From assembly GCA_020722085.1 (NCBI GenBank), contig DYLN01000005.1, positions 1-57,531 on the forward strand: a DNA stretch of 57,531 bases, given 5' to 3'. Numbering within the stretch: the first letter of the stretch is position 1; each line of letters starts with the position of its first letter. Below the pieces are notes generated by a model, which made no database searches, was not told the origin of the DNA, and worked only from the letters and a program-made list of their open reading frames with translations. The position numbers and the translations under genes are program-made. Positions 54,041-56,474 of the stretch are shown here, one piece after another. This stretch comes from Melioribacter roseus. Its GTDB lineage: Bacteria > Bacteroidota > Ignavibacteria > Ignavibacteriales > Melioribacteraceae.

Positions 54041-54535
54041 TTAATACATCATTCGATTACGCATCATTGGACGCGAGCCAAAATTATCCTTTAACCTATT
54101 TATCCGTTCGCGCATAAATCCGCGTGCATTTCCCATCCTGCCGAAATTTTTGGACCACAATTCTTTTTGTTCGGGGGTGAGTATTTTATAAACAGCAAGC
54201 CATGATTTTATCCTTTCAGATTTCAGTTCTGCCTGTAATTTGCTGTTTGCATCGGTTAAACTCAGAATCTTTCCTTCATCGATATTATTATCGCGAATCA
54301 TTTTCTGGATTTCGATTCTATTTTTTTCTATATCTGCCCGGATATCAACAGCTTTTAGTCTTTGGTTATACATGATATCGCTGAATTGTTTTTGCTGGTC
54401 GGCAGTCAGGTTAAGCATTTTATAGATCCCACCGTTATTTTGGAAAATTGGACGGTTGGGTTTATTGGGTTGAGCATTTACTAATCCTATGCTCATAAAT
54501 GTAACAGCGGCGAGAAGAACAACGATCTTTTTCAT
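54041..54535 (-). CDS. Spy/CpxP-like periplasmic protein
   Basis: 164 residues from the ATG at 54535, which has a perfect AAGGAGG site. A longer frame to 54583 exists. Signal peptide (VVLLAAVTFMSIGLVNAQ), then the Spy-like helical fold with two LTxxQ-type motifs: LTADQQKQF near residue 42 and LTPEQKELW near 121. The C-terminus is rich in Arg and Met (MRNRMMY). Such proteins bind unfolded periplasmic proteins or metals. It is divergent from the ECF sigma gene with mirrored promoters. Confidence 0.8.
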   Translation of the reverse strand: MKKIVVLLAAVTFMSIGLVNAQPNKPNRPIFQNNGGIYKMLNLTADQQKQFSDIMYNQRLKAVDIRADIEKNRIEIQKMIRDNNIDEGKILSLTDANSKLQAELKSERIKSWLAVYKILTPEQKELWSKNFGRMGNARGFMRERINRLKDNFGSRPMMRNRMMY

Positions 54536-54567
54536 TTTTACCTCCTTGGTAATAAGTTTTTTATTCA

Positions 54568-54654
54568 TTCGATAATTTGACATAATTACACCTTCAACGG
54601 TTTAAAAAAGATGATTTAAACCAGAGTTTGTATTATTTTGTCAAAGTTATCGAA
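54568..54654. promoter_or_regulatory. Mirror-image divergent promoters of the envelope-stress module
   Basis: Two nearly identical promoters face opposite ways. Plus: TTCGATAA (54568-54575), TTGACA (54577-54582), 18 bases, TTTAAA (54601-54606). Minus, on the opposite strand: TTCGATAA (54654-54647), TTGACA (54644-54639), 18 bases, TTTAAA (54620-54615). The -10 boxes are part of a perfect inverted repeat GGTTTAAA-N8-TTTAAACC (54599-54622). The 87-bp dyad likely lets one sigma factor or regulator control both directions. Confidence 0.65.
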
Positions 54655-54667
54655 CTTAAATGTGTTT

Positions 54668-55222
54668 ATGGCAGATCCAAATAACGATTTTGAATTAGTG
54701 AAAAGCTTTAATGAAGGGAATGAAAATGCTTTTAACATTATTATCAGAAAATATCAGCAAAAAATTTATTGGCATGCAAGAAGAATGCTTGGAAATCATC
54801 TGGATGCTGATGAAGTTACTCAACAGGTAATAATTGTTCTTTATAATAAGCTTAAGACTTTCAGTTTTAAATCTAGTCTCTATACATGGATTTATAAAAT
54901 TGTTAATACGAGAAGTCTTAACCAGATAAAAAAAAATCAGGTAAAGAGGTTTTTTAGTTTTGAAGATGTACGTGAAAATGAGCTGTCCGGTTCGAATGAT
55001 ATTATTGAAGATATTTCTAACAAACAAATAATTGATAAAGTACAAAAACTGCTGCAGAAACTGCCCTTGAAGCAGAGAGAAGTTTTTATTATGAGAAACT
55101 TTGATGAACTAACGTATGAAGAAATTTCTAAGATAACCGGCAAAAGCGTCGGCGGGTTGAAAGCAAATTATTTTCATGCTTTAAAAAAGTTAACGGAGAT
55201 GATGAAATATGAAGATCAATGA
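54668..55222 (+). CDS. ECF-subfamily RNA polymerase sigma factor
   Basis: 184 residues from ATG 54668. A TTG at 54638 in the same frame lacks a ribosome site. Sigma region 2 is FNIIIRKYQQKIYWHARRMLGNHLDADEVTQ (residues 28-58), and region 4 is KLPLKQREVFIMRNFDELTYEEISKITGKSVGGLKANYFHALKKL. No other domain. It is followed by an anti-sigma-like gene overlapping by 14 bases and by a Spy-like gene, which suggests an envelope-stress circuit. It may drive the mirrored promoters in front of it. Confidence 0.88.
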   Translation: MADPNNDFELVKSFNEGNENAFNIIIRKYQQKIYWHARRMLGNHLDADEVTQQVIIVLYNKLKTFSFKSSLYTWIYKIVNTRSLNQIKKNQVKRFFSFEDVRENELSGSNDIIEDISNKQIIDKVQKLLQKLPLKQREVFIMRNFDELTYEEISKITGKSVGGLKANYFHALKKLTEMMKYEDQ

Positions 55223-55808
55223 AAAGATATTAAGGCACCTCAGCGGACTGATGGGCGAGGAAGAAAAAACAATCTTCGAAAAAGAACTGAGTGAATCACA
55301 CCAACTCTTAGCTGAGTATAATAAAATAAAATTATATCTAGATAATATTTCCAGTGTGAAAGAAATCTCGGGCGATCCTGCGTATTTCGTTAATCTGCTG
55401 CCGAGAGTAAGAGAAAAAATTCAAGCGAAAAAGAAAAACCAGTTCTCTAAAAAAATTGTATATGCAATTCCCGCTCTTTCTGCGGCTTTGATAATATTTT
55501 TGATCTATTCGCCTGCAAATAAAAATGTTACTGTGGATGACCTTGTTAACGAAATTATAGCCAATGCAGACCAAAGAGAAATTTCAGATAGATATGTTAA
55601 TCTTAGCAACGACATAGATGATTACGGGTTTTATGAAGAATCTGTTCCTGATACAGTTATGATACCGGCAGAGTGGCAAAAGGGTGCAGAAGCTTATTAT
55701 ATTACAAATCGTCAGTTTAGAAATGGTGATGATTTTAGCCTGCTTGAAAACCTAAGCGAAAAAGAACTGGAAGAAGTTTATAAAGATTTATCGAAAATTA
55801 ATATTTAA
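55209..55808 (+). CDS. Anti-sigma factor-like single-span membrane protein
   Basis: 199 residues. The N-terminal cytoplasmic part starts ILRHLSGLMGEEEKTIFEKELSES, like zinc-free anti-sigma N-domains. One hydrophobic span lies near residues 79-97 (VYAIPALSAALIIFLIY), leaving about 100 residues outside. The pairing and 14-base overlap with the ECF sigma gene are the main evidence. Confidence 0.7.
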   Translation: MKINEKILRHLSGLMGEEEKTIFEKELSESHQLLAEYNKIKLYLDNISSVKEISGDPAYFVNLLPRVREKIQAKKKNQFSKKIVYAIPALSAALIIFLIYSPANKNVTVDDLVNEIIANADQREISDRYVNLSNDIDDYGFYEESVPDTVMIPAEWQKGAEAYYITNRQFRNGDDFSLLENLSEKELEEVYKDLSKINI

Positions 55809-55820
55809 AAAGGTGAAGCA

Positions 55821-56285
55821 ATGAAAAGAATATTGTCAACAATTTTGCTTTTACTTTTTACTGTAGTATTAACAGCACAAGAGGGTCCCGGGAAAAATGT
55901 GAGAATGAAACTACGAAAAATAGAGCAGCTTGAAAAAGCCAAGTTAATTGAAGCATTGAATTTAAGTGAAGATACGGCAGTGAGATTTTTTGCCAGAAGG
56001 AATGAAAATCAAGAAAAGATAAAAAGTTTATTTGAAGAGCGGGATAAGATACTTGCTGGGATCGAGGATAATTTTAAGTCGAACACCAAAAATCCGGACG
56101 ATTATTGTAAAAAGACAGTTGATAAACTGCGAAATATTGATGAACAAATTATAAATGAGAAATATTCATTTATTAATTCACTGAAAGATATTTTTACTGC
56201 TGAACAGATAATAAAATATCTAGCATTTGAATATAGTTTTAGAAAAGAAATCAGAGAATCTATAATGCGCCACAGGCAAAGATAA
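55821..56285 (+). CDS. Spy-like periplasmic protein, second copy
   Basis: 154 residues, signal peptide (STILLLLFTVVLTAQ). It is all-helical, highly charged, with one LTxxQ-like motif near the end (FTAEQIIKYL) and the LNLSEDTAVRFF element. It lies 12 bases after the anti-sigma gene. A likely regulon member and possible sensor of misfolded envelope protein. Confidence 0.7.
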   Translation: MKRILSTILLLLFTVVLTAQEGPGKNVRMKLRKIEQLEKAKLIEALNLSEDTAVRFFARRNENQEKIKSLFEERDKILAGIEDNFKSNTKNPDDYCKKTVDKLRNIDEQIINEKYSFINSLKDIFTAEQIIKYLAFEYSFRKEIRESIMRHRQR

Positions 56286-56387: not shown

Positions 56388-56474
56388 GCGGAAGTGGTGA
56401 AATTGGTATACACGCTACTTTGAGGGGGTAGTGCCCGTTAGGGCGTGCGGGTTCGAGTCCCGCCTTCCGCACCA
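56388..56474 (+). tRNA. tRNA-Leu (anticodon GAG)
   Basis: 87 bases. The acceptor arms GCGGAAG and CTTCCGC pair perfectly. The anticodon stem-loop is CTACT-TTGAGGG-GGTAG with GAG in the centre. A long variable arm (TGCCCGTTAGGGCG) and GGTTCGAGTCC follow, and CCA is encoded. This is a type II tRNA that reads CUC/CUU. Confidence 0.95.

What the first reader, a model, noticed from the sequence alone, without database searches (positions are those of the whole stretch)
54568..54654. Mirror-image promoters between a Spy-like gene and an ECF sigma operon
Both directions carry TTCGATAA, TTTGACA, 18 bases, GGTTTAAA in nearly the same form, around a perfect 8-8 inverted repeat. The arms have drifted between the -35 and -10 but not in the boxes, so selection keeps both. 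The simplest reading is an autoregulated ECF sigma factor that drives its own operon and a chaperone gene at once, with an unusual promoter sequence.
Basis: partly seen in the sequence, partly recalled or inferred. Interest (0 to 1): 0.65.

Follow-up and report, generated by a model that had tools for sequence, protein, structure and literature searches.

The report
Back-to-back promoters of one ECF sigma
The mirror-image motif is two outward-facing copies of the DNA signal for one stress-response sigma factor, which switches on its own operon, a neighbouring periplasmic chaperone gene and probably a few other envelope genes; the layout is kept across a whole bacterial order, but this way of working is well known.

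Summary
The mirror-image motif is real and conserved. Read outward, each arm is an ordinary ECF-type promoter: -35 TTTAAACC, 16 bp, -10 TGTCAAA. The left arm points at the Spy-like gene. The right arm points at the sigma, anti-sigma and third-ORF operon. Of 110 distinct orthologous loci, all keep the sigma-proximal arm about 49 bp from the sigma start, and 108 keep an outward arm, nearly always in front of a Spy-like gene. The gap between the arms varies from 0 to 393 bp. Three results fix the direction. More distant relatives keep only the sigma-proximal arm (24 of 37 forward, 2 of 37 reverse). Of 42 single sites elsewhere in relatives, 34 have a gene start just downstream in the outward direction and 4 in the inward direction. 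Genomes without the sigma gene essentially lack the motif. The other sites precede OMP_b-brl_3 outer-membrane proteins, MacA-type fusion proteins, TolC, small Spy-like proteins and a lipoprotein family; in this genome one heads a Spy-MacAB-TolC operon. The anti-sigma resembles RsiW, RslA and RskA. The outer octamer repeat is peculiar to this genome. New member of a known kind; no expression data.

The parts
54041..54535 (-). Spy-like periplasmic protein gene (164 aa, signal peptide by inspection), target of the left promoter
   Evidence: Pfam Metal_resist 3.7e-13 and LTXXQ 4.3e-09, both above cut-off; NCBIfam Spy model 4.7e-12 but below its equivalog cut-off
54540..54547 (-). Shine-Dalgarno sequence AAGGAGGT of the Spy-like gene
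   Evidence: direct reading
54568..54575 (.). left copy of the outer octamer TTCGATAA; spans the inferred start of the Spy transcript (about 54570)
   Evidence: the TATCGAA form follows the -10 in 1 of 108 left arms, so it is not conserved
54576..54582 (-). -10 element TGTCAAA of the Spy promoter
   Evidence: TGTC in 108/110 loci on this side; consensus TGTCAAA
54599..54606 (-). -35 element TTTAAACC of the Spy promoter
   Evidence: TTAAAC in 108/110 loci, 16-bp spacer in 95, 17 in 13
54615..54622 (+). -35 element TTTAAACC of the sigma operon promoter
   Evidence: TTAAAC in 110/110 loci, 16-bp spacer in 106
54639..54645 (+). -10 element TGTCAAA of the sigma operon promoter
   Evidence: TGTC in 110/110 loci; also in most distant relatives that keep an arm
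54647..54654 (.). right copy of the outer octamer TTATCGAA; spans the inferred start of the sigma transcript (about 54651)
   Evidence: the TATCGAA form follows the -10 in 1 of 110 right arms
54668..55222 (+). [quoted passage not shown]
   Evidence: PF04542 3.7e-12, PF08281 1e-15; TIGR02937 4.5e-26 above cut-off
55209..55808 (+). anti-sigma factor (199 aa), one transmembrane segment at residues 83-101, start overlaps the sigma stop
   Evidence: position kept in 110 loci, TM-like segment in 108, no HxxxCxxC; model resembles RsiW, RskA, RslA; no Pfam match
55821..56285 (+). third operon gene: secreted helical protein (154 aa), unnamed conserved family, possible regulator of the anti-sigma
   Evidence: conserved third gene; model pLDDT 93; weak likeness to CnrX and ZraP

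Best explanation
The element is a pair of back-to-back promoters, both read by the ECF sigma factor encoded at 54668-55222. Each has -35 TTTAAACC, a 16-bp spacer and -10 TGTCAAA. The right promoter drives sigma, anti-sigma and the third ORF (positive autoregulation with a built-in brake). The left one drives the divergent Spy-like periplasmic chaperone. Inferred mechanism: the anti-sigma, held in the inner membrane by one helix, keeps the sigma bound through its N-terminal cytoplasmic domain. Envelope damage, sensed by its periplasmic part and possibly by the secreted third protein, releases the sigma. The holoenzyme then fires both promoters and a few unlinked ones, in this genome probably a small Spy-MacA-MacB-TolC operon and a lipoprotein gene. 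Shown by sequence: motif, its direction, conservation, link to the sigma gene, gene families. Inferred: that this sigma is what binds, the transcript starts, the signal and the release step.
For: All 110 distinct orthologous loci have the sigma-proximal arm, 49 +/- 3 bp before the sigma start; the other arm lies 72-466 bp away. 108/110 have the outward arm, median 43 bp from the ATG of a divergent gene; 106 of those proteins carry an LTxxQ-like motif. The gap between arms runs from 0 to 393 bp while each arm keeps its inner geometry. In class- and phylum-level relatives 24/37 keep the sigma-facing arm (chance 1.4%) and 2/37 show a reverse one. In 58 genomes the strict motif has 106 hits in 54 genomes with the sigma, [0,0,0,1] in 4 without it, and 13 hits for the reversed control. 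Of 42 single sites elsewhere, 34 have an ORF start 5-75 bp downstream outward and 4 inward. These ORFs fall into recurrent envelope families: 10 OMP_b-brl_3, 5 small Spy-like (one in this genome), 3 MFPs plus the one in the own-genome operon, 3 of one lipoprotein family (one in this genome). ECF factors typically recognise AAC at -35 and CGT at -10, are co-transcribed with an anti-sigma and are autoregulated (PMC8103513). The anti-sigma model's best PDB matches are RsiW, RskA and RslA.
Against: No transcript or binding data. The -10 is TGTC, not the textbook CGTC. Other ECF factors of the genome were not tested for the same specificity. The anti-sigma match is weak (Foldseek E 0.39, VIA Z 6.9) and its periplasmic half is poorly modelled. 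Two loci (L101, L137) lack the left arm. 13 of 37 distant loci show no clear arm. The two unlinked sites in this genome have two mismatches to the full pattern and are not commoner than chance as a class; they are believed because of the genes behind them.
Confidence: 0.92

Rival explanations
1. One reading: two inward-facing, overlapping promoters with -35 TTTGACA and -10 GGTTTAAA; the left arm drives the sigma operon and the right arm drives the Spy-like gene.
For: TTGACA is the textbook sigma-70 -35 hexamer; the geometry is possible at this one locus.
Against: Loci with only one arm keep the arm that would then face away from the sigma gene (distant loci). With gaps up to 393 bp the transcripts would have to cross the other arm and a long leader. 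Single sites elsewhere have genes downstream outward 34:4.
Confidence: 0.02
2. The palindrome is the operator of a dimeric transcription factor that sits between two ordinary promoters.
For: Dyad symmetry at this locus.
Against: Half-site spacing varies from 0 to 393 bp with no convincing helical phasing; single half-sites occur before other genes; presence follows the sigma gene.
Confidence: 0.02
3. The promoters are real and outward-facing but are read mainly by another ECF factor of the cell, so the operon is a target and not autoregulated.
For: Several other ECF-like genes occur per genome; their promoter sequences were not determined.
Against: Of the four genomes that lack this sigma but keep other ECF genes, three have no motif and one has a single hit inside a coding frame; the motif lies before this sigma's own gene in all 110 order-level loci and most distant ones.
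Confidence: 0.04

Closest known systems
RpoE-like and SigW-like ECF sigma/class I anti-sigma systems (E. coli sigmaE-RseA, B. subtilis SigW-RsiW)
   Same: Two-domain sigma, neighbouring single-pass anti-sigma with a class-I-like N-terminal domain, autoregulated AAC-type promoter, envelope targets including periplasmic chaperones.
   Different: -35 TTTAAACC and -10 TGTCWAA; third gene encodes an unnamed secreted helical protein; no zinc motif in the anti-sigma; fixed divergent Spy partner.
CnrYXH of Cupriavidus metallidurans (ECF CnrH, anti-sigma CnrY, periplasmic sensor CnrX)
   Same: Three-gene logic of sigma, membrane anti-sigma and periplasmic alpha-helical protein; targets include tripartite export. 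The third protein's model has a weak CnrX match.
   Different: The anti-sigma resembles class I domains (CnrY is described as class II, PMC8103513); the third protein has no conserved His, Cys or internal Met for metal binding; gene order and divergent Spy gene differ.
Spy/CpxP/LTXXQ periplasmic proteins
   Same: The divergent gene is an LTXXQ/Metal_resist family member.
   Different: In E. coli spy is controlled by the Cpx and Bae systems (own knowledge); here it sits under an ECF-type promoter.
Bacteroidota sigma/anti-sigma/'sensor of ECF-type sigma factor' operons (lead from memory)
   Same: Same three-gene order in class- and phylum-level relatives, many with the sigma-facing arm.
   Different: Those relatives lack the mirror arm and divergent Spy gene; no paper found under that phrase.

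Membership tests
[quoted passage not shown]
   PF04542 at 26-91, PF08281 at 123-175, about 31 residues between
ECF (group IV) sigma factor | promoter with AAC in the -35 and CGT in the -10 (PMC8103513) | tested here: inconclusive
   AAC met (TTTAAACC); the -10 is TGTC, so GT is present but not the leading C
ECF (group IV) sigma factor | co-transcribed with an anti-sigma factor | tested here: inconclusive
   overlapping neighbour gene with one TM segment in 108/110 loci and class-I-like fold; co-transcription and binding not tested
ECF (group IV) sigma factor | positive autoregulation | tested here: inconclusive
   conserved motif before its own gene in 110/110 loci; no expression data
class I anti-sigma domain | N-terminal three- to four-helix domain as in RsiW, RseA, RskA | tested here: inconclusive
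   RsiW VIA Z 6.9 over 68 residues, rmsd 5.0; RslA Z 6.1; Foldseek E 0.39
CnrYXH-type metal-sensing ECF system | periplasmic sensor with conserved metal ligands (His/Met) | tested here: not met
   no column with His, Cys or Met above 50% in the third protein except the start Met
LTXXQ/Spy family (divergent gene) | match to PF07813 or PF13801 above curated cut-off | tested here: met
   37.4 vs 24.3 bits and 50.1 vs 29.2 bits
LTXXQ/Spy family (divergent gene) | chaperone activity | not testable with these tools
   none

The most novel reading that the evidence does not exclude
The third operon protein, a conserved secreted helical family with a weak likeness to CnrX and ZraP, is the actual stress sensor: it holds or releases the anti-sigma and competes with unfolded proteins, while the divergent Spy-like protein closes a chaperone-titration feedback loop. 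This would be an ECF envelope-stress circuit specific to this part of Bacteroidota, with a sensing mode unlike the protease cascades of sigmaE and SigW.
Probability: 0.15. Interest if true: 0.6.

Novelty: new member of a known kind. Interest (0 to 1): 0.38.

Why it matters
It gives a well-supported promoter code (TTAAACC-N16-TGTCWAA) and a partial regulon for an ECF factor found in nearly every sampled genome of an order with almost no published transcription work, and it ties Spy-like proteins, MacAB-TolC export and large outer-membrane barrel proteins to one predicted envelope-stress response. It also shows how an order fixed a divergent chaperone gene onto an older single autoregulated promoter. 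The kind of circuit is well known.

Tried and rejected
Inward promoters and a dimer operator: rejected (see rivals). Helical phasing of the arm-to-arm gap: weak (vector length 0.33 at best for 29 distinct values, about 0.3-0.4 without the 8-12 bp cluster), not claimed. Copying of one arm to make the other: spacer and flank identity within a locus is hardly above that between loci. The outer octamer as a functional repeat: not conserved. Pfam and NCBIfam for anti-sigma and third ORF: nothing useful; PDB sequence search: best E 0.005 to a VirG-like protein for the third ORF, nothing for the anti-sigma. The long VIA list for the third ORF is mostly helical-hairpin background. Literature: no paper linking ECF sigma with Ignavibacteria, none using the 'sensor of ECF-type sigma' phrase; the 2021 ECF classification paper is not held, so no ECF group number is assigned. 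Three family searches failed on a wrong frame; the first two were repeated correctly.

Full report
Observation. The stated 18-bp spacer is 16 bp for the boxes as written. The outer octamers are exact but set one base differently from the boxes on the two sides. The 31-base pattern occurs without mismatch nowhere else in the 3.64-Mb genome.

Direction. TTTAAACC-N16-TGTCAAA read outward has the layout of an ECF promoter, an AAC-type -35 and a GT-containing -10 (PMC8103513). Orthologues of the sigma were collected from 97 related genomes and a GTDB scan, and stretches were fetched; 110 are distinct. All 110 have a sigma-proximal arm pointing at the sigma gene, spacer 16 in 106, 49 +/- 3 bp before the sigma start, whereas the other arm lies 72-466 bp from it. 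108 have the outward left arm, median 43 bp from the ATG of a divergent gene, and 106 of these proteins carry an LTxxQ-like motif. The gap between arms varies from 0 to 393 bp, so the arms are independent units.

Two further tests agree. In 37 class- and phylum-level relatives, 24 keep the sigma-facing arm with at most one mismatch (chance 1.4%), while 2 show a reverse arm. And of 42 strict sites outside the sigma locus in relatives, 34 have an ORF start 5-75 bp downstream outward, 4 inward. The inward reading would predict the opposite in both. The mirror arm and the divergent Spy gene therefore look like an addition made within this order to an older autoregulated promoter (inference).

Link to this sigma. 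Over 58 genomes the strict motif has 106 hits in the 54 with the orthologue and [0,0,0,1] in the four without; the reversed control has 13 in all. The single hit in a genome without the sigma lies inside a coding frame (L201). Arms of the same locus are hardly more alike in spacer (4.8 vs 4.5 of 16) or flank (3.7 vs 3.7 of 10) than arms of different loci, so common recognition explains the mirror likeness.

Genes. [quoted passage not shown] The anti-sigma overlaps it, has one TM segment, no zinc motif and no Pfam match; its model's first 70 residues match RsiW, RslA and RskA best, weakly but specifically. The third gene is conserved, secreted by its N-terminus and helical, with weak matches to CnrX and ZraP and no conserved metal ligands. 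The divergent gene is an LTXXQ/Metal_resist protein. One survey found that only 6% of Bacteroidetes ECF factors have a class I anti-sigma domain protein nearby (PMC7406223), so this pairing is a minority arrangement there.

Regulon. Unlinked sites in relatives precede OMP_b-brl_3 outer-membrane proteins (10), small Spy-like proteins (4), HlyD/MacA-type fusion proteins (3), a TolC, and a lipoprotein family (2). In this genome two looser sites stand before members of the same families: C34:23402, heading small Spy-like, MacA, MacB ATPase, MacB permease, TolC (L218); and C95:2137, before the lipoprotein (L219). As a class such looser sites are not above chance, so these two rest on the shared gene families.

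Mechanism. Best supported: an autoregulated ECF envelope-stress factor held by a membrane anti-sigma, firing its own operon and Spy from back-to-back promoters plus a small export and outer-membrane regulon. The promoter anatomy is shown by comparison; the binding, signal and release steps are inferred. The start sites (about 54570 and 54651) are inferred from the usual distance to the -10.

Novelty. The circuit type is well known; the promoter code, the divergent Spy arrangement fixed in an order, and the third-gene family appear undescribed in the held literature, which is incomplete.

Noticed in passing
L218:1103-6220 (this genome, contig C34 from about 23402): A motif site heads a small Spy-like gene followed by MacA, MacB ATPase, MacB permease and TolC genes: a chaperone packaged with a tripartite exporter.
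   Followed up: partly
L219:1320-2114 (-), also L194 and L209: A lipoprotein family without any Pfam match recurs behind the motif in three genomes.
   Followed up: partly
L239-L276: In class- and phylum-level relatives the sigma, anti-sigma, third-gene order persists, and many of the class-level loci have a gene resembling a cysteine desulfurase (by eye) right after it.
   Followed up: no
left arms of 108 loci, 5-9 bases after TGTCAAA: Spy-side promoters share a CAAAA-like stretch at the inferred start site that sigma-side promoters lack.
   Followed up: no
window 56388-56474: tRNA-Leu (GAG) just downstream of the sigma operon.
   Followed up: yes
L229:434-5595: In one relative the motif precedes a Spy-like gene, a response regulator, a histidine kinase and an OMP_b-brl-like gene, suggesting cross-talk with a two-component system.
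   Followed up: no
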